Below are positions 20,306-36,767 of a stretch of DNA of 64,000 nt, piece by piece. The position numbers and the translations under genes are program-made. The notes beneath the pieces are model-generated. The model worked only from the letters and a program-made list of their open reading frames with translations, had not been told where the DNA came from and did not search any database. Within the stretch, counting starts at the first letter, position 1. Every line of letters begins with the position of its first letter. The stretch comes from Thermococcus sp. (GTDB lineage: Archaea > Methanobacteriota_B > Thermococci > Thermococcales > Thermococcaceae). The stretch is taken from assembly GCF_015521605.1 (NCBI RefSeq), contig NZ_WANV01000030.1, forward strand, positions 62,001-126,000. The letters run 5' to 3'.

Positions 20306-20307
20306 GC

Positions 20308-21217: not shown

Positions 21218-21314
21218 GCCCCTTCTCCCCTTTTCCGTTCCCCACCCAAACCCTTAAATGGCGAACTCTTCTAACTTCAAGTTGAAATCAAAGACCCCCT
21301 CAGGGGTGGAATAC

Positions 21315-22631: not shown

Positions 22632-23014
22632 GGTACGGGAAGGACTTCACCGACAAGGGTCTGGCAAAGTTCGGGGACTCACTGGTAAACTTCGTCTTCT
22701 CCCTTGCCCTGAGTGAGTATCTGGGCAGGCCCACGGGCGAGAGGGTCCCCAATGCGTCGCTGAGCATAGCGCTTGAGCTGGCAGGACTGAGGCATGTTAT
22801 CCCGCCGAGGACTGACAAGCACGGAAAGGGCGACGTAGCTGAGGCCATATTCGCCTACGCCTGGCTGGAGGGCAAAATAACTGTGGAGGAAGCCGCCAAG
22901 ATTTTGAGAGGAAACTTCACGGAAGACGTCACGCACTTCTCGCGGAGGAAGGAGGCGATAGGGAAAGCTTTCGCGGAGGTTTTCAGGGTAATAAAGGAGA
23001 GGCTGGATCTGTGA
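22628..23014 (+). CDS. RNase III-family protein
   Basis: A 128-residue single-domain protein with a [20 protein letters not shown] start and a [14 protein letters not shown] motif that recalls the two acidic signatures of RNase III/Mini-III nucleases. It has no dsRNA-binding domain. The TTG start at 22628 follows GGGTGAG and overlaps the upstream stop. It is the last typical chromosomal gene before the low-GC island. Activity is unproven. Confidence 0.65.
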
Positions 23015-23042
23015 TGGAACGCCCGACTGGTAATTTACCCCG

Positions 23043-23519
23043 CTAATGACGTTTTTCTTTGAAGTCCCACGCCCTAAATATTGTTTTCGCTGGTTTGGCC
23101 TCCAGTTTTCGTCTCGTTGTTTCCAGGAGCAGTAATGTGGCTGTTGCAAATGCTATGTTCACAATGAACAGTTGTGGAGTTTCAAACGTGCTTAACGCCA
23201 GCAGTGGAATTGCGATTTCGAAAGTCCTGTACAAGATCCCGCTCCATCTTAGAATCTGGTCAAATTGGAGGAAAACCCTGTAGGCGACGTATGTAACTCC
23301 AACCCCTACCAGAAGAATGCCCGGTTGCTCCGGCGGGTAATACGCCACCATTGCAAACCCTGAGATTGTTAGGCTCAGGATTGGAGCTGTCGCCAGTAGG
23401 ATTTTCTTCCTCCGAGAATCACCGGCCATATACTTGGCGGCTATCAGTATGGCTACTAAAAAGAGAGTAAAAAACCAGAGGATTTCAAGCACCAGTACAC
23501 CCCAGTCTCCACCGTTCAT
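23043..23519 (-). CDS. Multi-spanning membrane protein, candidate immunity protein (module 7)
   Basis: A 158-residue hydrophobic protein with about four to five membrane spans (LEILWFFTLFLVAILIAAKY, AIPLLALSTF) and a basic C-terminus. The start at 23519 follows GGGGGT, which belongs to the end of a degraded cassette. It is the last member of the array and faces the convergent RNase III-family gene. The role as immunity protein is inferred from its place after a toxin-like remnant. Confidence 0.6.
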   Translation of the reverse strand: MNGGDWGVLVLEILWFFTLFLVAILIAAKYMAGDSRRKKILLATAPILSLTISGFAMVAYYPPEQPGILLVGVGVTYVAYRVFLQFDQILRWSGILYRTFEIAIPLLALSTFETPQLFIVNIAFATATLLLLETTRRKLEAKPAKTIFRAWDFKEKRH

Positions 23520-23523
23520 ACGT

Positions 23524-23703
23524 TCAACCCCCAATGATATTATTGTTAGGTGTCTCTTGATCCTCAAGCAGTATGTGGTAGTGTGATATCCATGCCAGTT
23601 CTTTGACTCCTTTAACCGTTACTGTCTCAAGTATTCCGATTATCCCGGATTTAGCATCCGTGTGCTTCTCTCTTGTTCGTGAGCATATTTTCTCATCTAT
23701 GTT
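23524..23703 (-). pseudogene. C-terminal cassette remnant (module 7)
   Basis: An open frame of about 58 codons without a start codon lies between two membrane-protein genes: it reads SGIIGILETVTVKGVKELAW and ends NNNIIGG. It begins out of frame inside the 3' end of the upstream membrane gene and ends just before the next one, exactly as the intact cassettes do. It has lost everything upstream, so it is probably a decayed toxin tip. Confidence 0.45.
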
Positions 23704-24229
23704 CCCTCTCTATTCTATTAGAGTTCTGCAAGGCTTTAATTTCGCTCTGCAACCATAATGTACATATTCCATAAACTATGGCAATTGGAGTTCTGTATAG
23801 TACTATCAACAGGGCCGTTGGAATGTAGAGGAATAACAGACAAGATGGTCTTAGGCTCTTGCATTCATCCTTGAGATAGTACCAGAGGAGGAACCAGGTT
23901 AAAATACAAAAAGCTCCGTATCCAGGATATTCAAAGAGCAACGTTGCCGAAAAAACAAGAAATGGGATGGAAGCCAGAGCACCACTGTTTTCAATATCCC
24001 TTCTGGTTATGCCGATAAGGTGTCTCCTGATAGAGATTATGGCAGTCGCTAGCCATAGCATGGCTGAGGCTATAAGTGGCAAAAGGGCTTCTATCGAGTT
24101 TAATTGTGTTGCGATATATCCAGTAACCAACAAGATAACGAGACAAACACTAGCCTTCCTTGAAAATGCGATAGCAAGTAATGCGAGGACAATTCCCAAA
24201 AAGATAGAGACAGCGAGAGAGATTTCCAT
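23693..24229 (-). CDS. Multi-spanning membrane protein, candidate immunity protein (module 6)
   Basis: A 178-residue protein with about five to six membrane spans (MEISLAVSIFLGIVLALLAI at the start). A GGAGATGACAA ribosome binding site lies inside the cassette frame upstream. It follows the C-terminal cassette of module 6 and is taken as its partner by position. Confidence 0.6.
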   Translation of the reverse strand: MEISLAVSIFLGIVLALLAIAFSRKASVCLVILLVTGYIATQLNSIEALLPLIASAMLWLATAIISIRRHLIGITRRDIENSGALASIPFLVFSATLLFEYPGYGAFCILTWFLLWYYLKDECKSLRPSCLLFLYIPTALLIVLYRTPIAIVYGICTLWLQSEIKALQNSNRIEREHR

Positions 24230-25308
24230 TTGTCATCTCCCCACAATTGCATTGTTGTCATTTTCTGGGTGAATCCATCAACACCCCATTCAAAGGTCCA
24301 CTGGATCTCTGAGGCAGCTTTTCCGAGCTTGGGAAGGTTTGTTATTATAAATACTGTCCAACCTATGGGATTACTGCCCTCAGCAACAAGTTGTGCTGTG
24401 GATATTATCTTCCCCGCGGTTGACCCATAGTCTATTGCTTTGTCTGTTCCACTTCTCGTGTCCTTGTAAATTACCGTTATTATGTCTGAAACTGGGTAAC
24501 TTGGTTCACTGAATCTCACTTCAATTAAGTACGAGTGTCCGCTTAGTTTATTAATGTATGTCCTGTAAATGGGCTTTCCAAAGTAGTAGTTCGCTAGCTC
24601 ATCATCTATGTTAATGGTTATTGTCAGGTCCTCCTGCATGTTGGTTGGAGTCAGGGTCACAGTTTGCTCGTTAACTGTAACGCTGCTTGGCCCGTTCGGC
24701 CACACTTTCTTGCCTCCAAAGTCAATCTCTTCCAAGTTCAACGTAATCGTGTCAGCACTCTTTAGCTCAAAGTAAACAGTACAAGTGGTTGAACCGTCCA
24801 ATGGAACAACCGTAGGCTTGCATTCCATGCTTGCCTTAACTGGCCCGTCCTGCTTGACGTTGATTTTTGCGCTTGCCAGTGTCTTGCCCCCAACCTTTAA
24901 GTACAGGGTAGTGGTCTGAGCAATATTGTTGAAGTCCGTCCATTCACTCATTGTTTTGCCTGCGTAGATTTTTAGTGCTCCATCTTGTATTACATAACCG
25001 CAACCACTGCACCCATAATCTGTGTCCTTCTTTGGCCACCATTTTACTCCCGAATCATCGACTAACTCAATGTTGAATGGTCCCTGTGCACAGTTCGGAT
25101 CCAAGTTGGTGACAGTGATGTGGACACTTACACTTTCTCCTGCTTCAATCCACTCTGGATAAACCTCCAAGTGGCCCTCCAGAGGAACACCACTTAAACA
25201 AGTTGAAGTTGGGGGAGTAGAGACCGTTATCTCCCCGCTCCTCGGCGCTTCCAGTTTTCCGTCCTCCCGGACTTCTATTCTATAGTCGTGCTCTCCTGTC
25301 AGGGAAAT
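24100..25308 (-). pseudogene. Orphan C-terminal cassette (module 6), truncated at its 5' end
   Basis: The frame opens right after a TGA at 25309-25311 and has no good start codon; the first candidate is a TTG at 25170. It begins in the middle of a CARDB-like strand with repeat A (GEHDYRIEVREDGKLEAPRS), continues with a second beta domain (PEWIEAGESVSVHITVTNL), a cysteine-bearing region (YGCSGCGY) and a hydrophobic C-terminal stretch (VAEGSNPIGWTVFIITNLPK). The frame overruns the next gene by 130 bases, so the original stop is probably lost. No signal peptide. A silent cassette is the best reading. Confidence 0.6.
25225..25296 (-). repeat. Junction repeat A, copy 1
   Basis: One of three near-identical stretches that encode EDGKLEA(S/P)RSGEIxV in orphan cassettes (others at 26358-26416 and 29829-29901). 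The core CCAGTTTTCCGTC is identical in copies 1 and 2 and has one change in copy 3. Copies 1 and 3 also share CTATTCTATAGTCGTGCTCT. Confidence 0.75.
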
Positions 25309-25340
25309 TCACGTTAAGATAAACTACTCTAGAGTTCCAG

Positions 25341-25625
25341 CTACAACTCGTGGTTTTTATCTCCCTTTCCGTTCTGCAGTCTTCTCTCCAGTTCTTCTGG
25401 GGTCAAGTATTCAATCTTGTCTGAGTTGCCAATAATGTAAGGTTCCTTTGGAAATTTTTTACAGTTCTCAAAGTGTTTGATGTCACATAGAATCCACACC
25501 AGGAGTAAAGGCCATGAGGGCAGGAGGGCTAAAACTGCGCTCCAAACTATAGATTCAGTCAAGAAAAAAAGAGGAAGGAACACAATAATATACGCGAGAA
25601 AGAACTTCTTAAGATACTTACTCAT
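25341..25625 (-). CDS. Small membrane protein, candidate immunity protein (module 5)
   Basis: A 94-residue protein with two to three membrane spans in its N-terminal half (FFLAYIIVFLPLFFL and WSAVLALLPSWPLLLVWILC) and a charged cytoplasmic-looking tail. The start overlaps the stop of the module 5 cassette (ATGA), so the pair is translationally coupled. Confidence 0.62.
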   Translation of the reverse strand: MSKYLKKFFLAYIIVFLPLFFLTESIVWSAVLALLPSWPLLLVWILCDIKHFENCKKFPKEPYIIGNSDKIEYLTPEELERRLQNGKGDKNHEL

Positions 25626-26527
25626 GAGACATCACCCCCGTAACTCTTGTCTTCAATCAGATACTGACCGAGCATACCGACGAAACTACCAGTGGAGCCA
25701 CCTAACACGGTCTGCCCCATTCCTGTTACTGCCATGTCTCCAAAAATTGCAGGGGCAAGACACGATGCTCCATACATAGAGACTAATGTAAATGTAGGAG
25801 TTATGATAACATACTGTGTCCATTTCTTCTTCACGTATCCGTCGTATTTGACTGTGATGACCTCTTTCTCACTTTGTGTTAGTGTTTCTGTTGGTATAAA
25901 GTCTATTGCCTTGTATATTCTTAAGCTGATCGTATGGTTCTTGGGCAAAAATTGGATCCTTGTCGTGTTGTAACACACTCTACGCTGGCATACTGTCCCA
26001 CCGCTTTCCTCGACACTATGGACAAAGCTCAATGCAGTTGCTGATGGTCCGTACATAATCTGAGCCAGCCCATCACTGAACTTAACCTCGTACTTTATCG
26101 TCAAGCTGGAATTTCCTGATAGAATCCTTGTATTAAGCCAAAAGGTCTCGATGTCATCAATCACAACTCTTGGGGCTATTTGGATTCTTGGACCGTTATT
26201 CTTTATATTTACAGTGCAGAAAACTTTGTCTTTGTCAAGTCTCCATTCATACAGTCCAACTTCTTTTGGCATACAGGAAAAGCCTGTAATTTCCAAGTTT
26301 GTATTGTTTATGCTAGACTCATCCTTCTGAAAATCTTCAATGGAATTAACCTCTATACTCCCGCTCCTCGACGCTTCCAGTTTTCCGTCCTCCCAGACTT
26401 CTACTCGCCACTGGTGATAACCAGCTTTAGCACTTTCGGATCCTTGGATCTTCATTATAAGTAGAGAAGATGCAAAGGAGGGAGAGAACCCAGCAAGGAG
26501 ACTTTTCGCGAAGCTCACCTCTATCAC
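25622..26527 (-). CDS. Orphan C-terminal cassette (module 5)
   Basis: A 301-codon frame opened by a GTG, with an ATG at residue 25 as alternative. It carries repeat A (WEDGKLEASRSGSIEV) near residues 45-60, then beta-rich domains (VFCTVNIKNNGPRIQIAPRV), a CQRRVC pair that could form a disulphide, and a C-terminal glycine-rich hydrophobic segment (SCLAPAIFGDMAVTGMGQTV). No signal peptide. The N-terminal 35 residues do not look like the rest and are probably a shifted or decayed remainder of the preceding domain, so expression on its own is doubtful. Confidence 0.6.
   Translation of the reverse strand: MIEVSFAKSLLAGFSPSFASSLLIMKIQGSESAKAGYHQWRVEVWEDGKLEASRSGSIEVNSIEDFQKDESSINNTNLEITGFSCMPKEVGLYEWRLDKDKVFCTVNIKNNGPRIQIAPRVVIDDIETFWLNTRILSGNSSLTIKYEVKFSDGLAQIMYGPSATALSFVHSVEESGGTVCQRRVCYNTTRIQFLPKNHTISLRIYKAIDFIPTETLTQSEKEVITVKYDGYVKKKWTQYVIITPTFTLVSMYGASCLAPAIFGDMAVTGMGQTVLGGSTGSFVGMLGQYLIEDKSYGGDVS
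26358..26416 (-). repeat. Junction repeat A, copy 2
   Basis: Second copy of the cassette junction repeat. CCGCTCCTCG, CGCTTCCAGTTTTCCGTC and CTCCCAGACTTCTA are shared with copy 1 apart from single-base changes. Similarity stops soon after the motif, where the cassette sequences diverge. Confidence 0.72.
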
Positions 26528-26557
26528 CTCTGCAGTAGTCTCTTACTTTGTTTTTCT

Positions 26558-27079
26558 TCATTGCGATCCTTCTGCTTGCTTTGATCCGCGGATAGGTGTC
26601 CTCGCCTCCTCAAACATTAGGTAACCGCCGAATATCAGCATTACTGAGGCAATTGCCTCAATCCAATTGGAGGTGGAAACACCTTCTATGAGTGGATTTA
26701 AGGAAAAGAATCCTAAGAGAAGGATTCCGAAGTATTTAAGCCTTAAATCCGCGTCCGGGACTACGGACCATCTGCTGAGGCCGTAACGCATCAGTAGCAC
26801 AAAGCCAAAGAGGGCAAGTAGAATTATTAGGAGGAGAATTGCCCCAAGAGGCACCATAACGAAAGCACTGATAAATATTAGGATTAAATTTGCCAGGAGA
26901 ACAAGGTGGATTAACTTTGGGAATCGCTCTTTCTTGTGTAGTGCTCTCCATAGTATGGCTGTCCAAACATACACCACTGAAAGGCTTACACTGGCAAGCG
27001 TGATAGCTACGTCCATGCCTGCAGAGATGTATAGAAGGAAAAGAGATGCAAAATAAATAACGACACCTATCCACTTCAT
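26558..27079 (-). CDS. Multi-spanning membrane protein, candidate orphan immunity protein (module 4)
   Basis: A 173-residue protein with about five membrane spans (VVIYFASLFLLYISAG, LVLLANLILIFISAFVMVPL, GAILLLIILLALFGFVLLMR). A GGGGGGAT ribosome binding site precedes ATG 27079. The cassette that should precede it is reduced to a few codons after junction repeat B, so this looks like an immunity gene kept after its toxin was lost. Confidence 0.6.
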   Translation of the reverse strand: MKWIGVVIYFASLFLLYISAGMDVAITLASVSLSVVYVWTAILWRALHKKERFPKLIHLVLLANLILIFISAFVMVPLGAILLLIILLALFGFVLLMRYGLSRWSVVPDADLRLKYFGILLLGFFSLNPLIEGVSTSNWIEAIASVMLIFGGYLMFEEARTPIRGSKQAEGSQ

Positions 27080-27165
27080 GTGAATCCCCCCATTATGGCC
27101 TTCCTAGGACACCGTGCCATATAAGTCCGAACACTTGGAGGTCTCATTTCACTCCAGTAACTTCT
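27080..27165 (-). pseudogene. Cassette remnant after repeat B (module 4)
   Basis: Between two membrane-protein genes the reading WSEMRPPSVRTYMARCPRKA can be followed to a TGA that overlaps the next ATG. WSEMR is the conserved end of junction repeat B; almost nothing of a cassette follows. A one-base deletion in this repeat copy (GGAGAAGTTACTGG against GGAGAAGAACACTGG) puts it out of frame. It looks like a cassette deleted down to its junction. Confidence 0.45.
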
Positions 27166-27199
27166 CCTGCTTCGTTTGGTTCTCTGTCGTGATGTTGAC
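27143..27199 (-). repeat. Junction repeat B, copy 1 (decayed)
   Basis: Decayed copy of the stretch that encodes NYDGKPNGAGEEHWSEVR in the intact cassette. The 3' end of the upstream membrane gene reads through it as HHDREPNEAGE. It differs from the other copies by several substitutions and a one-base deletion. Confidence 0.65.
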
Positions 27200-27695
27200 A
27201 TAGTATAATCCATAATAGGGTGGTTATCACCCCTAAAATCGCTAGTGGGTAATTCCTAATAATCACTATTAAGGTCCAAAGTCCCAATAGTGTGATCGTT
27301 ATAGCTACTCTTCCAGGCTTTTGACGTAAGGAGATCACTCCCAGTCCGTCCAGTAGAGTTATAGAGGCCACCTTGAGAATAGTGGTAAAGTCTTTGATGT
27401 CCCCTTTGATCACCATGTAACCTACTCCAATAAACCAAACGAGAAGTACAATAATGTACCCACTTGGAGATTTTTTGCTTTTCTTGTTTTGGATTCTAAT
27501 CAGAGAATAAGGTATCGCAAATGAGAGAATTCCAAATCCTAAACCTGTAAGAGGAACCTCAAAGGCCTTGCTAAGTGTTAGTACTTCCAGAGACAGTAGT
27601 GAAAAAGCAAAAGAAAGCTGGAGTACTCTTTTCCAGTCGGGATATGCCATGAGTCCTAAAATCGGAATGAGAAAGATAAGGGGAATGACGTCCAT
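27144..27695 (-). CDS. Multi-spanning membrane protein, candidate immunity protein (module 3)
   Basis: A 183-residue protein with about six membrane spans (VIPLIFLIPILGLMAYP, GYIIVLLVWFIGVGYMVIKG, IILGVITTLLWIILCQ-like end). ATG 27695 follows GGGGTGATTGAGA and is preferred over a TTG two codons upstream. The last 15 residues are encoded by junction repeat B, so the gene's 3' end has been shaped by recombination with the next module. Confidence 0.6.
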   Translation of the reverse strand: MDVIPLIFLIPILGLMAYPDWKRVLQLSFAFSLLSLEVLTLSKAFEVPLTGLGFGILSFAIPYSLIRIQNKKSKKSPSGYIIVLLVWFIGVGYMVIKGDIKDFTTILKVASITLLDGLGVISLRQKPGRVAITITLLGLWTLIVIIRNYPLAILGVITTLLWIILCQHHDREPNEAGEVTGVK

Positions 27696-27701
27696 TCTCA
27701 A

Positions 27702-28076
27702 TCACCCCGTAATGTAGTCAAGGTAACCAAATACTCTCCGTGAATACTCGACTGCGTTCCTTGTCCACACTATTGCCTTGTTTGATCCCTTCAGGAATAT
27801 CAGTGTAATAGCAATATCCACTGTGACTACTTTGTTGTTTTGAGTTATTTTGCCACCACCATAGCCCTTGAACTCAACTGTGCCCTCAGAGGTCTTTAAG
27901 GTATATGGTAGCTGTAGAGAATACGTGCTCCCCCAGAGCCCCAGCTCTAATACTAAAAGGGGAACCTCTGCACTCGAAGTAAATTTTATGACAATTTTAG
28001 TGAAATACAAATCATTACATTCAAATCCCACCTGCTCTAACTCTACTCCCCTCATTGGCTTTACTTCCATCCTCAT
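27702..28076 (-). CDS. Orphan C-terminal cassette (module 3)
   Basis: A 124-codon frame from ATG 28076; the same frame stays open about 60 bases further upstream through junction repeat B (NYDGKPNGNREEHWSEMR). The body, LEQVGFECNDLYFTKIVIKF and so on, aligns with the residues after repeat B in the module 2 cassette (LKQVTSECDPIYFKYN), and then diverges, ending with AVEYSRRVFGYLDYITG. No signal peptide and no upstream domains remain. A toxin tip without its secretion head. Confidence 0.6.
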   Translation of the reverse strand: MRMEVKPMRGVELEQVGFECNDLYFTKIVIKFTSSAEVPLLVLELGLWGSTYSLQLPYTLKTSEGTVEFKGYGGGKITQNNKVVTVDIAITLIFLKGSNKAIVWTRNAVEYSRRVFGYLDYITG

Positions 28077-28130
28077 CTCGCTCCAGTGTTCTTCTCTGTT
28101 TCCGTTAGGTTTGCCGTCGTAATTGTCTGG
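28072..28130 (-). repeat. Junction repeat B, copy 2
   Basis: Encodes NYDGKPNGNREEHWSEMR in the cassette frame. The upstream membrane gene reads the same DNA in another frame (IQTITTANLTETEKNTGAR). Shares GAAGAACACTGGAGCGAG with copy 3. Confidence 0.75.
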
Positions 28131-28849
28131 ATAACATTTTCATCCTGATTACTACCAACTTCGTGCATCAGTATAAGTAGTGTTAAGAGAAATGTCCATG
28201 CAATAGAACCGACAATCGGTAGCAAAAGGCCTGTCCAAGGATCCACTATACTCGGAACTAATGGAATGTACAAGAATATATAAACCCACGGTGTGAGTTT
28301 GATTATTTTCTTCTTAGTGACATCATTTTGTGAGCTAGCTAATCTGTAAATGACTACAAATACTATTACTTCACAGATAATGAGGAAAATCCTATACACA
28401 GATGCCTCTGAGATGACGAACAGTTTGTAATTAATCCCCACAAGGCTTACAATGACTATTATCGTAAGAAGCAAAGGGGCAACTTTACCTATATTGAAAA
28501 CCCTTTCCAAGAGCAAGATCCAGCGTACGTTCCTTAAATCCAAATACATGAAAAACCAGAATGCCGGCAAACCGACAAAAATAAGTATCCTAACAGGAAG
28601 TGATACTTTTATGCTTGCGCCCATCAAAAAACCTAGCCAATAAAAGAAGAACCCTGCAAACTTGGGATCATCCCCAATGTATACTAAGAAAAACAAGATT
28701 AGAATTATAGGCATTGTCATCAATCCTAAAACTTTGGTTGAATGAACACCCTCATGATGCAAGAGAGCTGCAATTCCTAATTGTGAGAGAATAAATAAAA
28801 AGAGAGACTTCCATATCCCCTTGAAGGACACCCTTTCCGACATCCTCAT
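28073..28849 (-). CDS. Multi-spanning membrane protein, candidate immunity protein (module 2)
   Basis: A 258-residue protein with seven to eight membrane spans (FLFILSQLGIAALLHHEG, MTMPIILILFFLVYIGDD, PLLLTIIVIVSLVGINYKLF). ATG 28849 overlaps the stop of the module 2 cassette (ATGA). The last 20 residues are read out of frame through junction repeat B, so the native C-terminus was probably replaced when module 3 was joined. Confidence 0.62.
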   Translation of the reverse strand: MRMSERVSFKGIWKSLFLFILSQLGIAALLHHEGVHSTKVLGLMTMPIILILFFLVYIGDDPKFAGFFFYWLGFLMGASIKVSLPVRILIFVGLPAFWFFMYLDLRNVRWILLLERVFNIGKVAPLLLTIIVIVSLVGINYKLFVISEASVYRIFLIICEVIVFVVIYRLASSQNDVTKKKIIKLTPWVYIFLYIPLVPSIVDPWTGLLLPIVGSIAWTFLLTLLILMHEVGSNQDENVIQTITTANLTETEKNTGAR

Positions 28850-30054
28850 CCCCTCCACCATGTTATAGCGTACTCTTTCATCCAGTTGGCAAGCCAGTTG
28901 GCTTCTGGTGGAAGCTTATTTAGGATATCCTGAATAAACTTAATGTTGGCGATAGGTGCGGATCTTTTCCCGAGTTTGTATGTTAAGAGTGCATCGGCAG
29001 CAATGTCTGCAACTACTGCCATGTGGTCTACTTCTACATAGACCCTGCTCTGGAGAGTAAAGCGCTGAATCCCGAGTTTATCAAAGGGCACGTCGTGAAT
29101 TATTTTTACTGGAATCCTCGCTCCATAAATCCCTTCTACTTGAATATCATTCCATGCGTCTTCCCAATAGGGAAATATGTCCCCAATAACAAAGATATCA
29201 GGTTTTGATATCTTGAAGTGTGCGATAGACGTTATGGTGGAATAACCTCCGGTCGGTATTGTTTTGGGATCAATGTAACTGACTACTGGTGAAAAGCTTC
29301 CTGCTGGAAATTGCAGATACTTGTTTAATATTGAAACATCAATATCCGAAACGATATCCCCTGTCACTTTTAAGTCGTAGCTGTATCCATTGTAAATTGT
29401 TAATCGACAAGTGAGAGTCGCCTCATAGTTTCCCATATTGTACTTGAAGTATATTGGATCACACTCCGACGTTACTTGCTTAAGTTGATCACCAGTTTTC
29501 ACTGTCACCCTCACCTCGCTCCAGTGTTCTTCTCCTGCTCCGTTTGGTTTTCCATCATAATTGTCAAGGAAAAGTTTGATAGTATGATTGCCGATTCCTA
29601 TAAGGGGATGCGAGAACACTAGTAGTGAGTCCCCGTTAGCATTTACGGGGATCTCCGCCGTAATGTTCTTAATCCTCTCCCCGTCAACTTCAATGAATCC
29701 TCTAACTTGAATTGGGGATCTGTCATAATTCCACGCTTTCACTTGCAAATACACCTCGCCGCCACCTTCAAGCTCATGAGGATATACAGTCAAAACAACG
29801 TTGAATAAGTCGCTGGGGACCCCACTCACGGTTATCTCCCCGCTCCTCGATGCTTCCAGTTTTCCGTCTTCCCAGGCTTCTATTCTATAGTCGTGCTCTC
29901 CGGCCTGAGCAGTCCACGTTAAAGTGACGCTCCCCGTGCTCCCACCACCGATCGTGAGGCTTTTGCTTGACTTTTCTTGGCCATCAATGAAAAGCTTTAC
30001 TGTTACTGTCCTAGACCTTGATACTGGATTTTTCACGCTCACATCAAAGCTCAC
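28846..30054 (-). CDS. Orphan C-terminal cassette with two CARDB-like domains (module 2)
   Basis: The longest orphan cassette, 402 codons from a GTG at 30054; the frame is open only eight codons further, to a TAA. It starts in the middle of a CARDB-like domain (SVSFDVSVKNP), then has repeat A (AWEDGKLEASRSGEITV), a second CARDB-like domain (LTVYPHELEGGGEVYLQV), repeat B (NYDGKPNGAGEEHWSEVR) and a variable C-terminal region of about 200 residues ending ANWMKEYAITWWRG. There is no signal peptide, so it cannot be secreted as it stands. Because it holds both repeat A and repeat B, it shows their order in an intact protein. Confidence 0.65.
   Translation of the reverse strand: MSFDVSVKNPVSRSRTVTVKLFIDGQEKSSKSLTIGGGSTGSVTLTWTAQAGEHDYRIEAWEDGKLEASRSGEITVSGVPSDLFNVVLTVYPHELEGGGEVYLQVKAWNYDRSPIQVRGFIEVDGERIKNITAEIPVNANGDSLLVFSHPLIGIGNHTIKLFLDNYDGKPNGAGEEHWSEVRVTVKTGDQLKQVTSECDPIYFKYNMGNYEATLTCRLTIYNGYSYDLKVTGDIVSDIDVSILNKYLQFPAGSFSPVVSYIDPKTIPTGGYSTITSIAHFKISKPDIFVIGDIFPYWEDAWNDIQVEGIYGARIPVKIIHDVPFDKLGIQRFTLQSRVYVEVDHMAVVADIAADALLTYKLGKRSAPIANIKFIQDILNKLPPEANWLANWMKEYAITWWRG
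29512..29572 (-). repeat. Junction repeat B, copy 3
   Basis: Encodes NYDGKPNGAGEEHWSEVR inside the module 2 cassette, the intact context for the repeat. Confidence 0.75.
29829..29901 (-). repeat. Junction repeat A, copy 3
   Basis: Encodes GEHDYRIEAWEDGKLEASRS inside the module 2 cassette, the intact context for the repeat, where it forms the last strands of a CARDB-like domain. Confidence 0.75.
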
Positions 30055-30120
30055 GCTGTCCCCATGGGTTGGATTGCTTTATACCCATCCAATGTTGTTG
30101 CTTGACGGTTGATTCTTGAA

Positions 30121-30342
30121 TTATGATTTGGATTGTGTTTCGTGTTTTAACTTTAATGATTGAATTCGCCCGGCTATGCTTAACTTTAGTTCGCCAACAT
30201 CATCAAAGAGTGCCCAGGCAAATAACCAGGGTATTATAAACACTAAAATTAACGCAATGAGCCCTCCATAAATTTCCGTCTCCATGAGGATGGGAAAGTT
30301 CATTGCTACTATACTGGCCAGTATAACACGGTAAACTTTCAT
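30121..30342 (-). CDS. Small membrane protein, C-terminal half of a split immunity-like protein (module 1b)
   Basis: A 73-residue protein with two membrane spans (VILASIVAMNFPILM and GGLIALILVFIIPWLFAWAL). It aligns by eye with the second half of the 190-residue membrane protein at 31054-31623 (MLVFVLSFLSILIIPVVLE and GGVLLWFIILLAPLGVMWSM). The start overlaps the stop of its first-half partner (ATGA). Confidence 0.6.
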   Translation of the reverse strand: MKVYRVILASIVAMNFPILMETEIYGGLIALILVFIIPWLFAWALFDDVGELKLSIAGRIQSLKLKHETQSKS

Positions 30343-30611
30343 AATTTTCCCTCCAGCATGTTAATTTCTTCTTCGAGATTAGTTAGGTTTGTTTTTTCAG
30401 AGTGAGCTAGGGCTCCGTATATTAAAAGCGGCACTAGAAGGAGTATGGAATATCCCAAAGATACAATAGAGACAGCAATTGCTGATATGCTGTAAAGTAT
30501 CATGGAGATCAGTTCTCCAGCACTGGGGCGTACCTTGAGCACAATACTTATTGTTAAAATCATATATGCTAGTACCACAATTGAATTCCATATTGGGATG
30601 TAGCTAATCAT
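30339..30611 (-). CDS. Small membrane protein, N-terminal half of a split immunity-like protein (module 1b)
   Basis: A 90-residue protein with three membrane spans (MISYIPIWNSIVVLAYMILT at the start). It aligns by eye with the first half of the protein at 31054-31623, including the LEEEI / LERPRI end. Here the protein is encoded as two ATGA-coupled genes, there as one. Confidence 0.6.
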   Translation of the reverse strand: MISYIPIWNSIVVLAYMILTISIVLKVRPSAGELISMILYSISAIAVSIVSLGYSILLLVPLLIYGALAHSEKTNLTNLEEEINMLEGKL

Positions 30612-30756
30612 CTGTTCCCCTCCTAACGTGGTTTTCGAGATTTAATAGTCTGCGATTGATTTTTCTGAGTTCTCTAAGGAGCCTACGGCGGAAGAAGTAC
30701 ATTAGAAATAAATAAAAGACCCAAGGAAGCACCATCAGTAGATATGCCTCGGGCAT
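30604..30756 (-). CDS. 50-residue single-span protein (module 1b)
   Basis: Starts MPEAYLLMVLPWVFYLFLMY and continues with a strongly basic helix (FFRRRLLRELRKINRRLLNL). It follows the module 1b cassette with a GGAGGGTGA ribosome binding site and overlaps the next start. It is a paralogue of the 50-residue protein at 31620-31772: same length, same place and the shared PWxFYxxL core. Confidence 0.58.
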   Translation of the reverse strand: MPEAYLLMVLPWVFYLFLMYFFRRRLLRELRKINRRLLNLENHVRRGTDD

Positions 30757-30761
30757 GTCAT

Positions 30762-31127
30762 TCACCCTCCTGGAAGGAACAGAGGCTTTAGTAAGTACTC
30801 AGCTACTCCTTTAGCTCTCTCCTTTGTTGATTCCCTTGCTCCAATAGTTTCAGCGAGATTATACACCCATATACTTCCTCCTACAAGTTTCCCATATATT
30901 CCAAAAGTGGCTTCTAATGCAACTTTTCCCTTTTCTGTGGTTGTGAGCATCGTTCCTGTTGATGATTCTATGGTGGCTATCTCAGAAAAAGTGGCTAACC
31001 CCGATAATAATGCTGGGGAGAATGCCATTGCAGTACCCTTCATGATGCCGTCACTAGCATCTTCGTTCCAGTATTTGCTTCCTGTGTATCTTGTCACTAT
31101 TATCCCCTCCAGGCTCTTGCATCTCAT
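30762..31127 (-). CDS. Orphan C-terminal cassette (module 1b)
   Basis: A 121-codon frame that starts inside the 3' end of the upstream membrane gene. Residues 5-37 repeat the junction of the full-length protein (SLEGIIVTRYTGSKYWN, GIMKGTAMAFSP), after which the two diverge completely except for the ending FLPGG. The variable part holds hydrophobic, glycine-rich segments that could insert into a membrane. No signal peptide. It is a second C-terminal tip for the 994-residue protein. Confidence 0.68.
   Translation of the reverse strand: MRCKSLEGIIVTRYTGSKYWNEDASDGIMKGTAMAFSPALLSGLATFSEIATIESSTGTMLTTTEKGKVALEATFGIYGKLVGGSIWVYNLAETIGARESTKERAKGVAEYLLKPLFLPGG
31013..31112 (-). repeat. Junction repeat C, copy 1
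   Basis: Encodes SLEGII-x-x-RYTGSKYWN...GIMKGTAMAFSP in the orphan cassette. By eye about four in five bases match copy 2 at 32009-32107, and similarity ends at both edges. Confidence 0.75.
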
Positions 31128-31623
31128 GATTTTGGTCGATACTCTTTGAGATATGTTCTAGTTCTAACTCAAATTCATCAATTTCTGCTAGCATACTCCA
31201 CATTACTCCAAGCGGGGCTAATAATATGATAAACCACAACAAAACGCCACCAAATGGAGCAATTTCCAGTACAACTGGGATAATTAGTATACTCAGAAAG
31301 CTAAGAACAAACACAAGCATCCTGTATCTCTTCGTATTTCCTGTATTTCGAGATACTCTCATGTCGTCCCTGTAGTTTATTCTTGGTCTCTCAAGGTGTT
31401 TGATTATATTTTGAGTTATCTGGAGGAATATTGAGTAATATACTAATGGTATGAGTAAGGAAAAAGAGTACCACTTTGAAATCTTCGAAGTAATTACTGC
31501 TGAAATGGTGTAACCGGCCAACAAGAGAGAGAGGATTCTGCTGGGATTCTTTTTTATTAACATTACCCCTAACGAGGTGTAGAGTACAACAATTGCGGCT
31601 GTTAAAATATTGATCGTTATCAT
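31054..31623 (-). CDS. Multi-spanning membrane protein, candidate immunity protein (module 1)
   Basis: A 189-residue protein starting MITINILTAAIVVLYTSLGV with about six membrane spans in two groups of three. ATG 31623 overlaps the stop of the 50-residue gene; the longer frame upstream belongs to that gene's DNA. The last 25 residues (MQEPGGDNSDKIHRKQ) are out-of-frame reading through junction repeat C. It is the fused form of the pair at 30121-30611. Confidence 0.62.
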   Translation of the reverse strand: MITINILTAAIVVLYTSLGVMLIKKNPSRILSLLLAGYTISAVITSKISKWYSFSLLIPLVYYSIFLQITQNIIKHLERPRINYRDDMRVSRNTGNTKRYRMLVFVLSFLSILIIPVVLEIAPFGGVLLWFIILLAPLGVMWSMLAEIDEFELELEHISKSIDQNHEMQEPGGDNSDKIHRKQILERRC

Positions 31624-31772
31624 TTTATAACCTCCTCTGAAGTTTTTAGGGGTTCTTGTAGAGCTTCCTTCATGTCTTTTAGCTTTTTGTACGTGGCTAT
31701 GCGTAAATGGAGTATAATCAAAAAATAAAAAAACCACGGGGCGAGTAGTATGACATATTCTTTACTGTCCAT
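31620..31772 (-). CDS. 50-residue single-span protein (module 1)
   Basis: Starts MDSKEYVILLAPWFFYFLII and continues with a charged helix. It begins within the stop codon of the 994-residue protein (TAATG) and ends overlapping the next start (ATGA), so the three are coupled. Paralogue of the 50-residue gene at 30604-30756. Together with the larger membrane protein it may make a two-part immunity complex. Confidence 0.6.
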   Translation of the reverse strand: MDSKEYVILLAPWFFYFLIILHLRIATYKKLKDMKEALQEPLKTSEEVIK

Positions 31773-34756
31773 TACAGACCCCCCGGAAGAAGCACGTTTT
31801 CAATAAATCTCTTAATGACGTTTTTAATTCCCTCTTTGATATTTTCTGAAGTTTCTATTATGTCCACTGCCTTAAAAGTAGTGATGTAGCCTCCCACAAA
31901 TGTAGTATAGTGACCTAACCCGTCTTTAGCGAGTATTGTAGCGCCCTCAGTAATACTTTTCGAACTCCATGCTGCCGGAAACGCATAGATAATCTCTATT
32001 AACAATGGAGAGAATGCCATTGCAGTTCCTTTCATGATTCCTCTGTTAGCGTCATAGTTCCAGTACTTACTTCCCGTGTACCTCGCCATTATTATCCCCT
32101 CCAGACTCATGTACTGATCAGATCCCAATCTAACTGTAACCCTCAAGTAATGTGGTGTATCTGCTCTCTTTAAAGTGTAGTGGCAAGTTCCGTCTTCACA
32201 CGACCATACATTGATTCTGGGTGTTAAATCCCGCACGTCACTGAGCTCAAGAGCTTCAGCCATTTTTTCATCAAGTGGAACAACAACTTCTGCTATTTTG
32301 CCACTGAATTTTGCTGGGATGACATCATTGATGAGATCAGCGCTGATTACCTTCGAGGTATCTTCGTCATTATCAAGCGTCTTGCTCGTTATTGAATAGG
32401 GCACATCAGATGACAAGGTATTCTTTTTGACTATAATGTCGCATACTCCTGTCTCCCCAAGTAACACCGGATCGCTAGGACACTCAAGACTGAGGGTTAG
32501 GTCGGTGGGAGTGCTTACTTCAATAGTTTTTGAATATAGGGGTAAGCCATTGACCTTTAGTGTTATTCTGTATGTGCCTGCATTACTAAATGTATGAGTC
32601 GTATAGTCTTCAAGATGGCTGTCTGGACTTACAACCACTCCGTAATAAGTTTTTTTGAGTATCTTCTGACCATTATCAATTTCAAGTGTTACAGTCGGAT
32701 TGGATAATTGTCCTTTAGAAGTCGTTATTACGTAGCGGAATGTCACAGCATCCCCCGCGTACACTATTGAAGGAGAGAAACTAAATGCGCCGTTTATAGA
32801 CCTTTCTTCGTCTTGGTCTGAACTCACCGTAACGCTCGTTTGGGCGCCCTTTGACTTTCCGTTCCAGTAGATTGAGGCGTGGGTAACGTAAGTGCTGGTG
32901 TCACTGTACGTCACATTCTGCTCCAGCAGGACTTTCTCCCCGTTATTGGGGACATCAACAGTTCCGGAGTACGTTCTGGAATTCGTTGGAGAGTATGGAA
33001 TCGTAATTGAATACTCTAGATTGTCCAAGGAGGCATTGTTTTCATTCCTCACGACAACCTTGTAAGTCACGCCCTCGCCCTCCATAATGCTGGTTCTTGA
33101 AGCTTCAACTGTCAGATAGACCCTGTTCCAATCCACTGGTGAGGTCAAATCAACCGTGGCGGAGTACTCTTCTCGTATCGTTCTTTCATCGCAACTTGGA
33201 GAGGCTGAGAGCGGTTCTAAACCCCCTCCAGAGAGAGGGACTGCCCCGCAGGAGGGAGTGTAGGTAACCTCAACTTTCCCACTCACGTGGAGCTCTCCGT
33301 CCATGGTGTGGGTTACTGAAAACCTCCCACTTTCCCAGGTGTAGGTTTCTCCAGAATTCAGGAACGAGACGCTCCCGCTGTCGGAACCACTGCCCGTGTA
33401 ATCGTCAACGTTGATCCTGATGTTGTTTATCGCGTTGTTTTCCGCACTCATCTTAACTTCAATGTGGTACTCTACTCTGCCCGGAACGTTACTGTCGATC
33501 ACGACTTTAATGTCGTTAATTTTCAGGACTCCCTCGGTGTTCTCTGGAATGAGCGCTAGCAGTGTAACTCCCTCTGGCTGGGTTCCTGTTGTTGGGATCG
33601 AGCTATCTGCAGGGGTACTGAGGGGTTCTTTCGAGGATAGCATTGATGGTAAGATTATCGGGTTCTTGATCGGTAGAGGTTTTGACTCGATGGGTGTTGT
33701 ATCGGTGTTGCTCTCGATAACCGCAACCCCAAGTGCTTCCTTTAACTCTGCGACCTTCTGATTGAGGATCCAATCCAATTCGGCGTTGGTATTGCCGTAG
33801 CTTCTTGCATTTATGAGTGTGTAAATGTCTTCAACAAGCTCATAGGCCTCCAGTGCGCTTGGCCAGTAATAAATGGTTGTTGTCGTGGTAACTTGTGTGG
33901 GGGTTGTTGAACGTGAGATTGTCTTGAACATCAAGCCGCCATTCTTAACGGGAGTTATGTTCTCGACCTTTCCCTGCAATGTAACGAGTCCTGTTTCTTG
34001 GTGGAGCATTAGGGTGGTGGTGCCGGCTTGACCGGTTATGAGCTTGTACGTTGCTTCCCTTAGATTATTGATGGCAAGCTTCATTTTCTGGTAATCCTTC
34101 TGGTAGTATCCCATGTAGAAAAATACCCATGGATCCGCCAGAACAGGGTTTATCTGTTTTCCAGGATCGTTGGTTGTGGGAACTTCCATTGGCTGGATCC
34201 ATTTCCATTTCTTCAGCGCCCAAGCTTCGTAGTGGTTGTATTTAAACGCTACATCCATGAAGGCCATGGAGAAGTCTTCAAGAAAGGCCGTCATGTTGAA
34301 GTCCTCGTTAATCCCGTCCGCGTTTTTGATAATGTAATCTTCCAGGGCTTGAATCTGCTCATCAGTCCAGCCTTGAGCCTTCAAAGCCTCAACCGTCTCA
34401 TGGGGAAGGCCGTTCCGGCTGATGTTCTGAGCAATTTCTCTAAGCTCCTCGGCGGTGTAGTACGTCTTAACTCCGGAAGCCTTCAGTTCTTCCAGAGCCT
34501 GCCAGATTGAGGCTGAAATGTTGGCCGCGTTATCTGCACCCAGACGGGAGTTTTGAATCAACTCTTGGGCCAGCGTAGTGTTTCCGGTGGTGTTGAACTG
34601 AACCACGAGTTCGGCTTCTTTGTTGAGAATCTCCCAGAATTTCTCGTACGGGTCGCTCTGGCTTTCAACGGTGGTGGCGTAGGCTGTGCTTCCAGCTGCC
34701 GTCACTATCGACCCCAGCATGAGAATTATCATCAACACTCCTACTGCCTTCCTCAT
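31772..34756 (-). CDS. Large secreted protein, head of the candidate polymorphic toxin locus
   Basis: A 994-residue protein with a clear signal peptide (GVLMIILMLGSIVTAAGSTA). Residues about 30-290 are alpha-helical (DPYEKFWEILNKEAELVVQF); a Ser/Pro/Thr linker follows near 350-395, then several Ig/CARDB-like beta domains, for example VEASRTSIMEGEGVTYKVVV and SFSPSIVYAGDAVTFRYVIT. The last 111 residues (from 884, SLEGIIMARYTGSKYWN) begin with junction repeat C and end in a hydrophobic tip closing LLPGGL. It is the only protein of the island with a signal peptide and it stands first, behind a promoter with GGTGA at the start. There is no C-terminal anchor. Alternative reading: an S-layer-associated or adhesin protein. 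Confidence 0.75.
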   Translation of the reverse strand: MRKAVGVLMIILMLGSIVTAAGSTAYATTVESQSDPYEKFWEILNKEAELVVQFNTTGNTTLAQELIQNSRLGADNAANISASIWQALEELKASGVKTYYTAEELREIAQNISRNGLPHETVEALKAQGWTDEQIQALEDYIIKNADGINEDFNMTAFLEDFSMAFMDVAFKYNHYEAWALKKWKWIQPMEVPTTNDPGKQINPVLADPWVFFYMGYYQKDYQKMKLAINNLREATYKLITGQAGTTTLMLHQETGLVTLQGKVENITPVKNGGLMFKTISRSTTPTQVTTTTTIYYWPSALEAYELVEDIYTLINARSYGNTNAELDWILNQKVAELKEALGVAVIESNTDTTPIESKPLPIKNPIILPSMLSSKEPLSTPADSSIPTTGTQPEGVTLLALIPENTEGVLKINDIKVVIDSNVPGRVEYHIEVKMSAENNAINNIRINVDDYTGSGSDSGSVSFLNSGETYTWESGRFSVTHTMDGELHVSGKVEVTYTPSCGAVPLSGGGLEPLSASPSCDERTIREEYSATVDLTSPVDWNRVYLTVEASRTSIMEGEGVTYKVVVRNENNASLDNLEYSITIPYSPTNSRTYSGTVDVPNNGEKVLLEQNVTYSDTSTYVTHASIYWNGKSKGAQTSVTVSSDQDEERSINGAFSFSPSIVYAGDAVTFRYVITTSKGQLSNPTVTLEIDNGQKILKKTYYGVVVSPDSHLEDYTTHTFSNAGTYRITLKVNGLPLYSKTIEVSTPTDLTLSLECPSDPVLLGETGVCDIIVKKNTLSSDVPYSITSKTLDNDEDTSKVISADLINDVIPAKFSGKIAEVVVPLDEKMAEALELSDVRDLTPRINVWSCEDGTCHYTLKRADTPHYLRVTVRLGSDQYMSLEGIIMARYTGSKYWNYDANRGIMKGTAMAFSPLLIEIIYAFPAAWSSKSITEGATILAKDGLGHYTTFVGGYITTFKAVDIIETSENIKEGIKNVIKRFIENVLLPGGL
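32009..32107 (-). repeat. Junction repeat C, copy 2
   Basis: Marks residues 884-917 of the full-length protein. It is the point where the full-length and orphan C-terminal tips start to differ. Confidence 0.75.
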
Positions 34757-34853
34757 CAGGATTTCACCGCAGTACTAACCAAAGTTAGAACTTAAAAGAT
34801 TTTTCTATCCAGATTTTGCTCACTACTATAAAGAGTATGCAAAAAATGGGAAA

Positions 34854-35660
34854 TCACAGGCTCGTCAGTAACTCTATCAGTCCCTGCTTTGTCGGGACCT
34901 TTGCGAACTTTTCTGGGTCCTTGACCTTGAGGAGGAGTGGAACGTCTCCAAAGAGCTTGAGAACCTTTCCAAAGGGTATGCCGCCCTCCCCAGGCAGGAG
35001 ATGAAGGTCGCCAACACCGTAGGCGAGGGCATCCTCCGGTTCGACCTGTGGGAAGAGCTTTCCGAAGTTGTCGTGTATCATGAGTATTACCGTCTTCTCC
35101 GTCCCGAGCTTGACGTCTTCAAGCAGTTTGTCCGCATCCCCCTGGGCGCTGAGGAAGGCGTGGGCCACATCGAGGGCGAAGCCGACGTTCTCCCTCTCGA
35201 CGTTGTCAACCACGTAGAGCGTGTCCTTGACGCTGAAAGTGTTTTCGAGGGCTATCTTTATGTTAAATGGGGCCACCATGTCGGCGAGCTGCTGGATGGC
35301 CTCTATCTCAAGGTCGAGCCTCCCTGTCCTCCCGCTCTGCATCACGATGACCTTTGCGCCGAGTTTTATGGCAACGTCTGCGATTGCCCTTGCAACGCGA
35401 AAGTGCCTGGTGTAATAGATGTGGTCGCGAAGGTTCACCGATGTTGGCATTCTGATTATGTACTCGATGCCGACGCCGCGGAGCGTTGTTTCGATGTTCC
35501 GGAGCTTCTTCTCTATCACCGTCCCGTTCATTATGAGCCCGAGGGTGTGCGGGAATATCGAAACGAAATCGTAGTTCTTTATTTTGACGTCGGCCAGAAC
35601 GGATGCGAGGGTTTTGTCCTTGGTGACGAAGTGCGGGTAAATCGTTACGCCTATCTCCAT
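34854..35660 (-). CDS. TIM-barrel sugar phosphate isomerase/epimerase family protein
   Basis: A 268-residue protein of the xylose isomerase-like / endonuclease IV-like TIM barrel superfamily. Typical strand ends are visible: KVIVMQSGRT, IALENTFSVKDT (metal-ligand Glu), NVGFALDVAHAF (Asp and His) and ILMIHDNFGKL (His, Asp). These acidic and histidine positions usually bind a divalent metal. The start at 35660 follows GGTGG. Substrate unknown; it is the first core gene beyond the island. Confidence 0.8.
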   Translation of the reverse strand: MEIGVTIYPHFVTKDKTLASVLADVKIKNYDFVSIFPHTLGLIMNGTVIEKKLRNIETTLRGVGIEYIIRMPTSVNLRDHIYYTRHFRVARAIADVAIKLGAKVIVMQSGRTGRLDLEIEAIQQLADMVAPFNIKIALENTFSVKDTLYVVDNVERENVGFALDVAHAFLSAQGDADKLLEDVKLGTEKTVILMIHDNFGKLFPQVEPEDALAYGVGDLHLLPGEGGIPFGKVLKLFGDVPLLLKVKDPEKFAKVPTKQGLIELLTSL

Positions 35661-35754
35661 GCTACCACCTACACAAGAGTTGAGCACTGGATATAAAAGC
35701 TTACCGAGGGGCAGGGTTTAAAAGTTTGGGCGGGAGATATAGGTGGGTGAGTGA

Positions 35755-36762: not shown

Positions 36763-36767
36763 GGGTG

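What the first reader, a model, noticed from the sequence alone, without database searches (positions are those of the whole stretch)
23043..34756. Candidate archaeal polymorphic toxin-immunity locus with orphan C-terminal cassettes
One full-length secreted protein (994 residues) is followed on the same strand by six further modules, each made of a leaderless C-terminal fragment (or its remnant) and one or more small multi-spanning membrane proteins. Modules share short junction sequences and then diverge in the C-terminal tip. Only the head has a signal peptide. In bacteria this layout (Rhs, CdiA) means a toxin with interchangeable tips and matching immunity genes. The tips here end in hydrophobic glycine-rich segments and the partners are all membrane proteins, which would fit membrane-targeting toxins. 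Archaeal polymorphic toxins have been predicted in general by comparative genomics; whether this family has been described I cannot check.
Basis: partly seen in the sequence, partly recalled or inferred. Interest (0 to 1): 0.92.

Follow-up and report, generated by a model that had tools for sequence, protein, structure and literature searches.

The report
Archaeal toxin-and-immunity cassette locus (VARTIG)
A heat-loving archaeon carries a secreted protein with swappable tips, each of which travels with its own small membrane protein; the family was named VARTIG in 2021 with its function unknown, and the patterns found here fit a weapon-and-immunity system that may attack membranes.

Summary
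A 994-aa secreted Ig-domain protein (31772-34756, minus strand) is followed by seven cassettes of a tip and membrane genes; two tips are remnants and one is frameshifted. The locus belongs to VARTIG, described in 2021 (PMC8416519), whose authors gave a polymorphic-toxin role as one of three hypotheses. The kind is known; the function is not.

I tested that hypothesis on 60 fetched regions of the same family. Similar tips are followed by similar membrane genes in 173 of 596 cross-genome pairs, against 18 of 8631 for dissimilar tips. The pairing tracks a ~50-residue core. Shared DNA blocks carry tip plus partner between species and between head and orphan positions. Intact partners without an intact tip are common (135 of 290 places), the reverse rarer (at most 23 of 178). 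This fits retained immunity genes better than adhesion alone. Against it: detectable tips and partners are broken at about equal rates (51 of 228, 86 of 376).

No toxin domain was recognised and the tip models were poor. Tips are the hydrophobic end of the protein; a membrane-depolarising (ionophore-like) action is inferred, not shown.

The parts
31772..34756 (-). Head gene, 994 aa: signal peptide, conserved helical N-domain (res. ~36-241), GN motif (res. 321-322), Ig/CARDB-like domains (res. ~410-748), variable C-terminal part
31997..32111 (-). Conserved junction before the tip (ARYTGSKYWN..GIMKGTAMAFSP), shared with M1 at 31005-31119
31775..31999 (-). Head tip (res. ~920-994), variable, ends LLPGGL
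31620..31772 (-). Head partner 1, small membrane protein, 50 aa, start overlaps the head stop
31054..31623 (-). Head partner 2+3, one ORF of 189 aa from the ATG at 31623; compare the two separate genes in M1
30762..31127 (-). M1 orphan tip, 121 aa
30121..30765 (-). M1 partners: three small membrane proteins (53, 90, 73 aa: 30604-30765, 30339-30611, 30121-30342); the same tip plus triplet recurs in L060 and L064
28846..30054 (-). M2 orphan, 402 aa, Ig plus tip
28073..28861 (-). M2 partner, 262 aa, 6 hydrophobic segments
27702..28076 (-). M3 orphan tip, 124 aa; same tip family as the head of L076 (78% over 97 aa)
27144..27701 (-). M3 partner, 185 aa, 6 hydrophobic segments
27093..27134 (-). M4 tip remnant: last 13 codons (VFGLIWHGVLGRP) and stop
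26558..27079 (-). M4 partner, 173 aa, open
25622..26527 (-). M5 orphan, 301 aa
25341..25625 (-). M5 partner, 94 aa, 2 hydrophobic segments
24100..25170 (-). M6 orphan, frameshifted shortly before the conserved C-terminal D-N-N motif
23693..24229 (-). M6 partner, 178 aa, open
23524..23688 (-). M7 tip remnant ending NNNIIGG and stop
23043..23567 (-). M7 partner (start more likely at 23519, 158 aa), open
25223..25317 (.). Junction repeat D1 (others at 26349-26443 and 29828-29922)
22616..23014 (+). Flank: RNase III-like gene (PF11469)
34854..35687 (-). Flank: AP_endonuc_2 TIM-barrel gene (PF01261); in 57 of 70 genomes with the two flank genes side by side they lie less than 130 bases apart (empty site)

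Best explanation
This is a VARTIG locus that works as a polymorphic toxin-immunity system. SHOWN by sequence: one secreted Ig-domain carrier with an exchangeable C-terminal tip; tips are tied to their own downstream membrane gene(s); tip plus partner occur as one DNA block shared between species and between the head position and downstream 'orphan' positions; partner genes are often found without a tip. INFERRED: older cassettes stay behind downstream, where the tip may be lost and the partner kept; the carrier is displayed on or released from the cell surface; the ~50-residue hydrophobic, often glycine-rich core of the tip inserts into the membrane of a neighbouring Thermococcales cell and disturbs it (ionophore- or pore-like); the cognate membrane protein binds that core in the producer's own membrane and blocks it; orphan partners protect against relatives that still carry those tips.
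For: Tip and partner co-vary across genomes: 173 of 596 tip-similar pairs share a similar partner, 18 of 8631 others do; 2000 shuffles of partners gave a mean of 12.45 and a maximum of 25. Head-size proteins (480 aa or more) only: 21 of 73 against 0 of 865. Between genera: 69 of 236 against 4 of 3364. 17 of 24 tip clusters with two or more members have one single partner cluster (counted). The signal rises towards the C-terminus: similar residues -300..-200 predict the partner in 45 of 760 pairs, the last 60 in 133 of 254. Core identity >=0.6 gives a similar partner in 68 of 75 pairs, a similar tail with a dissimilar core in 2 of 43. DNA blocks: 34 of 49 blocks over a tip end also span >=90% of the next membrane gene; 7 of 9 head-to-orphan blocks do. 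Asymmetry: intact partner without intact tip 135 of 290, intact tip without intact partner at most 23 of 178; broken tip with intact partner 28, the reverse 9. 141 of 152 membrane genes without a tip in front are homologous to a first partner of a tip elsewhere. In the window three tips are broken and the partner ORFs are open; dN/dS of those three partners to relatives is 0.17-0.50. Tips are the hydrophobic end: 35 of 44 head tips reach a 19-residue mean of 1.2, 2 of 44 Ig stretches do. Tip stop to partner start is <=10 nt in 106 of 138 units.
Against: No toxicity was tested and no known toxin domain found; the 2021 authors named this lack as the main caveat. Detectable tip ends and partners are broken at about the same raw rate (51 of 228 and 86 of 376 places; the two criteria differ), so the asymmetry rests mainly on partners that stand alone (107 of 290) and on the 28-to-9 contrast. 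Tips are not less constrained than partners (dN/dS 0.15-0.22 against 0.17-0.58), and these values cover time when a tip may still have been present. The tip models are too poor to show a membrane-active fold (pLDDT about 25 and 40). 111 of 235 pairs with similar last 60 residues have dissimilar first partners; over all head pairs the rank correlation of tip and partner similarity is only 0.20 (0.07 for body and partner); deep tip similarity is not mirrored by partners: 17 tip-cluster pairs but 1 partner-cluster pair of 435 reach hhalign probability 80. Partners are larger (median 168.5 aa, 4 segments) than CDI ionophore immunity proteins. Units were defined by a membrane gene next to the tip, so 'all partners are membrane proteins' is partly circular; apart from that, 44 of 54 head-size ORFs (at least two of them probably not VARTIG heads) and 101 of 153 orphans are directly followed by one. 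Nothing is known of delivery.
Confidence: 0.62

Rival explanations
1. Self/non-self recognition or adhesion: the variable tip is a displayed ligand and the membrane gene its cognate anchor or receptor, so they co-vary because they bind each other (third hypothesis of PMC8416519).
For: Ig/CARDB fold of the carrier, adhesion proteins in the fold lists (one Ig-type fold fills such lists), tight tip-partner pairing, equal raw breakage of tips and partners.
Against: An anchor without its ligand should be of little use, yet 107 of 290 intact partners have no tip match in front and 28 a broken one. Hydrophobic tips are unusual for a displayed ligand.
Confidence: 0.22
2. Silent-cassette reservoir for antigenic variation of a surface protein (for example to escape viruses); the partners help to export or seat each variant.
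For: Orphan cassettes mostly lack leaders and share DNA blocks with head positions of other species.
Against: Many partner genes have no tip in front (152 of 297; 109 follow another membrane gene, some of which may be second partners of one cassette). No switching within a genome was looked for here.
Confidence: 0.09
3. Complement-like innate immunity: the Ig protein binds foreign molecules (second hypothesis of PMC8416519).
For: Ig domains align with complement C3/C4 and alpha-2-macroglobulin chains.
Against: A shared fold shows no function; the 2021 paper states that VARTIG proteins have no thioester domain; cognate membrane partners and tipless partners are not explained.
Confidence: 0.05

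Closest known systems
VARTIG modules (arCOG07710 heads, arCOG14200 and other orphans), Makarova et al. 2021, PMC8416519
   Same: Thermococcales, secreted Ig-domain head first in a co-directed gene array, hypervariable C-terminus, smaller proteins that match the head's C-terminal region, membrane proteins, an RNase III homologue beside the locus; subfamily-specific membrane neighbours were noted there too.
   Different: Nothing that removes it from the kind. The window head lacks the D[ND]NxxxG[GD] end, which only part of the members have (the M7 remnant has a form of it). Added here: numbers for the pairing, cassette boundaries, the core, partners without tips, the empty site.
CDI ionophore toxins (CdiA-CT of E. 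coli EC93 type) with membrane CdiI, PMC11630599
   Same: Surface effector with polymorphic tips, very hydrophobic immunity proteins predicted in the membrane, very diverse cognate pairs (about 30% identity inside a group), putative glycine zipper.
   Different: Bacterial two-partner secretion, other carrier, CdiI of 72-100 residues with two helices; sequence relation not tested here.
Cdz contact-dependent bacteriocin of Caulobacter, PMC5380434
   Same: Surface-held glycine-zipper killing proteins, small transmembrane immunity protein CdzI.
   Different: Type I secretion; no swappable tips or orphan cassettes in what I read (abstract and headings).
Rhs/CdiA-type polymorphic toxins with orphan tip-immunity cassettes (recalled, and as summarised in PMC8416519)
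   Same: Head plus downstream leaderless tip-immunity cassettes.
   Different: No Rhs, CdiA or known toxin domain among the Pfam, NCBIfam or PADLOC matches.

Membership tests
VARTIG | Large secreted Ig-domain head at the 5' end of a co-directed array | tested here: met
   signal peptide by eye, beta domains at 410-748, CARDB of PF1109 (3idu_B) at Z 11.6, rmsd 2.8, 103 aligned
VARTIG | Conserved N-terminal region with GN motif and a conserved serine | tested here: met
   22 chosen heads: G321 invariant, N322 nearly so, S70, S81 and S163 invariant. Which serine the paper means was not checked
VARTIG | Hypervariable C-terminal region by exchange between species | tested here: met
VARTIG | Smaller downstream proteins homologous to the head's C-terminal region, and membrane proteins | tested here: met
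VARTIG | Two conserved cysteines in the distal Ig domain | tested here: inconclusive
   Head has C759, C772, C853, C858; C853 nearly invariant; identity with the paper's pair not checked
VARTIG | D[ND]NxxxG[GD] C-terminal motif (reported for part of the members, so not a defining mark of all) | tested here: not met
   Window head ends LLPGGL. 45 of 138 tips in the family have a loose form; the M7 remnant ends NNNIIGG
VARTIG | Restricted to Thermococcales | tested here: met
   Within what was searched: 115 genomes of the phylum (long matches in the window's family only; three genomes of two other families of the class match weakly, E 7e-15 to 3e-11, not inspected); genome contigs (18 loci, all titled Thermococcus, Thermococcaceae or Thermococci); viral contigs (none)
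VARTIG | RNase III homologue next to the locus (in several cases) | tested here: met
   22616-23014, PF11469 E 7.7e-56; 10 of 70 genomes hold an island at this site (hand tally)
Polymorphic toxin system | Exchangeable C-terminal tip co-varying with an adjacent cognate gene | tested here: met
Polymorphic toxin system | Orphan tip-partner cassettes and tipless partner genes | tested here: met
Polymorphic toxin system | Tip is toxic | not testable with these tools
   needs expression
Polymorphic toxin system | Partner neutralises its own tip only | not testable with these tools
   needs expression
Polymorphic toxin system | Recognised toxin domain | tested here: not met
   Ten window proteins against Pfam, NCBIfam, PADLOC, PHROGs. 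Not required for a new toxin family, but it keeps the claim at 'works like'
CDI ionophore family | Five-helix ionophore domain and two-helix CdiI | tested here: inconclusive
   Tip model of an L099 orphan shows three helices at low confidence; partners have a median of 4 hydrophobic segments, range 2-8

The most novel reading that the evidence does not exclude
VARTIG is an archaeal polymorphic toxin system whose tips are mostly membrane-active (ionophores or pores): some 50 tip families and about as many integral-membrane immunity families in the units seen here, mostly without detectable relation to each other, carried on one Ig-domain scaffold and traded among hyperthermophiles as tip-plus-partner cassettes. 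That would also explain why no nuclease domain has been found in it.
Probability: 0.47. Interest if true: 0.85.

Novelty: new member of a known kind. Interest (0 to 1): 0.58.

Why it matters
The function of VARTIG was left open in 2021 with three hypotheses. The tests here help to separate them: partner genes share DNA blocks with their tips, match a ~50-residue core, and often stand without a tip. That names short, expressible pairs for a direct test of what would be an archaeal contact or secreted weapon, in a group (Thermococcus, Pyrococcus) that has genetic tools (recalled). It also points to a class of hydrophobic, very diverse toxins that domain searches would miss.

Tried and rejected
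Rfam found nothing in 20000-38000. Known families: Pfam, NCBIfam, PADLOC and PHROGs gave no match above a curated cut-off for the ten locus proteins, only weak ones, some Ig-like (CARDB E 0.0022 for M2, below its cut-off; two PHROGs of unknown function for M2 at E 0.04). Search of solved-structure sequences with the head profile gave eight weak hits (E 0.007 to 0.57), mostly Ig-like domains, with the orphan profile A4 none. AlphaFold of the head: N-domain and Ig domains usable, tip not. AlphaFold of an orphan of L099 with six sequences: mean pLDDT 48.6, so its fold search is not used beyond saying that it lists Ig proteins. Search in viral contigs: none.

A test for deep homology among partner families: 1 of 435 cluster pairs. 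That is against one immunity superfamily and against strict co-divergence. Nine pairs with core identity >=0.55 but a different next gene were looked at: six share a homologous membrane gene among the next three genes (one of them only weakly, in a 45-aa ORF), three do not.

Rows dropped and limits: the loci L051, L075, L080, L084 and L093 (cut by contig ends), and the same five (6000 nt or less); L091 was used only as its reverse strand. Partners under 80 aa were not queries, so some of the 14 'tips without partner' do have small partners (for instance L060 and L064), and 23 of 178 is an upper bound (178 is the sum of the rows; the direct count of intact tips is 177). Two M1 partner places of the window count as not intact because they were matched to the fused head partner; they are open ORFs. 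The unit list (138) holds one artefact, the window's frameshifted M6; it is removed (137). 'Head' in these counts means 480 aa or more and includes C-terminal pieces of split heads and at least one large orphan (L055_4487, 485 aa). 'Intact' means an uninterrupted ORF over most of the match, nothing more. Gene calls are a simple longest-ORF procedure. The shuffles do not keep relatedness; (between genera, one unit per genome) is the control for that. dN/dS is Nei-Gojobori on single pairs. Block ends are spread: 10 of 29 lie within 60 nt of the partner stop.

The paper's supplements were not available, so I could not see whether this genome is among its 42. No follow-up paper on VARTIG turned up in the library in the searches (listings only; PMC10112665 is an editorial, listing only).


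Full report
WHAT IS THERE. On the minus strand, 34756 down to 23043, a 994-aa ORF with a signal peptide is followed by a co-directed series of ORFs. Seven downstream cassettes can be told apart by homology. Five have a long tip ORF (M1, M2, M3, M5, and M6, which is frameshifted just before its conserved end); two have only the tip's last codons (M4: 13; M7: about 45-54). Every cassette has one or more open membrane genes. The stretch has a G+C content of 0.39-0.49 where most of the window has 0.52-0.58. Junction DNA is repeated near the cassette starts.

WHAT IT IS. A literature search found the family at once: VARTIG (Makarova, Wolf, Karamycheva, Koonin 2021, PMC8416519; I read the main text without most of the reference list). 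That paper describes 31 islands in 22 of 42 Thermococcales genomes, the head and the smaller C-terminal relatives, the membrane genes, recombination between species, an RNase III homologue next to the locus, and three hypotheses: polymorphic toxin, complement-like immunity, self/non-self recognition. [quoted passage not shown] The window locus meets most tested marks of VARTIG (see Membership tests; the C-terminal motif, which only part of the members have, is not on this head). In the held genomes of the family 51 of 94 have a head match.

THE SITE. The island lies between an RNase III-like gene (22616-23014, +, PF11469) and a TIM-barrel gene (34854-35687, -, PF01261). Of 70 genomes in which both genes lie side by side on one contig, 57 have fewer than 130 bases between them, 3 have 0.76-1.02 kb, and 10 have 3.5-11.8 kb (hand tally); those 10 all have a head match at that place. 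In the other 24 of 94 the genes lie apart, on different contigs, or one is missing. Other islands lie elsewhere: in L098 a CarS gene stands before the head, and in L104 a ThiF gene after the island, so there is at least a second site.

PAIRING OF TIP AND PARTNER. From 60 fetched regions and the window I called ORFs and took every tip (head-size or orphan) directly followed by a membrane gene: 138 units, 44 of them head-size, in 51 loci. Over pairs from different genomes, similar tips (last 150 residues, >=45 bits) have similar partners (>=32 bits) in 173 of 596 cases, dissimilar tips in 18 of 8631; shuffling partners 2000 times gave a mean of 12.45 and a maximum of 25. For head-size proteins alone: 21 of 73 against 0 of 865; over these pairs the rank correlation with partner similarity is 0.20 for the tip and 0.07 for the body. 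Between genera: 69 of 236 against 4 of 3364; head-size between genera 6 of 29 against 0 of 314; with one random unit per genome, summed over 300 draws, 5350 of 18974 against 514 of 239326. Clustering by the last 60 residues gives 50 tip clusters and 49 partner clusters; of the 24 tip clusters with two or more members, 17 have one partner cluster only (counted by hand). The strength depends on where one looks: similar residues -300..-200 predict the partner in 45 of 760 pairs, -150..-90 in 153 of 538, the last 60 in 133 of 254. Inside the tip the core (-70..-22) carries the information: identity >=0.6 gives 68 of 75, while a similar tail (>=0.4) with a dissimilar core (<0.3) gives 2 of 43. Nine pairs with similar cores and different next genes were examined; six share a homologous membrane gene within the next three genes.

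CASSETTES AS DNA BLOCKS. Blocks of at least 300 nt and 80% identity between different genomes that run over a tip end number 49; 34 also span at least 90% of the next membrane gene, 8 less than 10%. Of 29 that link two units, 17 are orphan-orphan, 9 head-orphan and 3 head-head; 7 of the 9 head-orphan blocks carry at least 90% of the partner. An orphan of G044 and the head of G062 share 1794 nt at 94.8%; an orphan of G039 and the head of G090, of another genus, 1163 nt at 89.9%. Blocks begin at a median of 706 nt before the tip stop, that is inside the preceding Ig region, and end at a median of 6 nt after the partner stop, but with a wide spread (quartiles -200 and +111; 10 of 29 within 60 nt). 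The 2021 paper said that there were too few close genomes to place recombination sites. The window's M2, M3 and M5 have such blocks with L049, L055, L068 and L061. M3's tip belongs to the family of the head tip of L076.

PARTNERS WITHOUT TIPS. Of 297 membrane genes counted in the islands, 145 directly follow a head or tip and 152 do not; 141 of those 152 resemble a first partner of a tip elsewhere. Searching the DNA with tips and partners: 290 places hold an intact partner, of which 155 have an intact tip in front, 28 a broken one and 107 none; intact tips include 9 with a broken partner and 14 without a partner match. So 135 of 290 against at most 23 of 178 (Fisher p 1.4e-14; places are not independent, so the p-value is only a guide). 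On the other side, the raw share of broken places is the same: 51 of 228 tip ends and 86 of 376 partner places (60 of these without any tip), with criteria that differ. So the case rests on partners that stand alone and on the 28-to-9 contrast, not on faster decay of whatever is still detectable. In the window, M4, M6 and M7 have broken tips and open partners; dN/dS of these partners to relatives is 0.17-0.50, other partners 0.17-0.58, tips 0.15-0.22; the values do not isolate the time after tip loss. Genes that protect are expected to persist alone; an anchor, exporter or receptor of the tip much less so.

WHAT THE TIP MAY DO. The tip is the hydrophobic end of the head: a 19-residue mean of 1.2 or more is reached in 35 of 44 head tips (1.6 or more in 12), 70 of 94 orphan tips, 2 of 44 Ig stretches and 4 of 44 N-domain stretches; glycine-zipper-like spacings exceed shuffles (1.89 against 1.15 per head tip), though the N-domain stretch does so as well (1.16 against 0.60). 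Partners have a median of 168.5 residues and 4 hydrophobic segments. Hydrophobic toxin and membrane immunity protein are the pattern of CDI ionophores (PMC11630599; abstract and passages read) and of Cdz (PMC5380434; abstract and headings read). The CDI authors note that ionophore pairs are far more diverse than nuclease families. A membrane-acting tip would answer the main caveat of 2021, the missing nuclease domains. It stays an inference: the structure models of the tips are poor, and no solved relative was found with the one orphan profile searched.

FURTHER RESULTS AGAINST. Deep similarity between tip clusters is not followed by partner clusters (17 against 1 of 435 cluster pairs), which I read as shared Ig and tail sequence around different cores, but it could also mean that the partner does not always bind the tip. 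About half of the pairs with similar last 60 residues have dissimilar first partners (111 of 235). I found no toxicity data.

VERDICT.

Noticed in passing
G000:C36:128815-130661 (L054): The same genome has a second VARTIG locus with a broken head (matches to residues 2-87 and 272-696 in separate ORFs) and a further tip-membrane pair; it ends at a 235-aa gene of the size of the ThiF gene of L104 (not scanned).
   Followed up: partly
window 2589-6340: A second G+C-poor stretch (0.36-0.44 in 3-6 kb) next to a tRNA-Ser gene (6252-6338) with a coiled-coil-like ORF and a small membrane ORF; possibly an integrated element remnant.
   Followed up: no
window 31054-31623: The head's second and third partners are one ORF here but two genes in M1, L060 and L064; its end overlaps the start of the M1 tip in another frame.
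   Followed up: partly
L055 (G071), about 3968-4560: A relative with a head at the same site but a different last part of the tip has homologues of the window head's partners downstream (53% and 43%): perhaps partners kept after a tip change.
   Followed up: partly
L082 and L086 (G042, G033): Runs of seven membrane genes in a row without a tip between them, which look like banks of orphan immunity genes.
   Followed up: no
window 34034-34651 (head residues 36-241): A strongly conserved helical N-terminal domain, modelled with pLDDT of about 82 but barely tested in the fold search because Ig domains filled the list.
   Followed up: no
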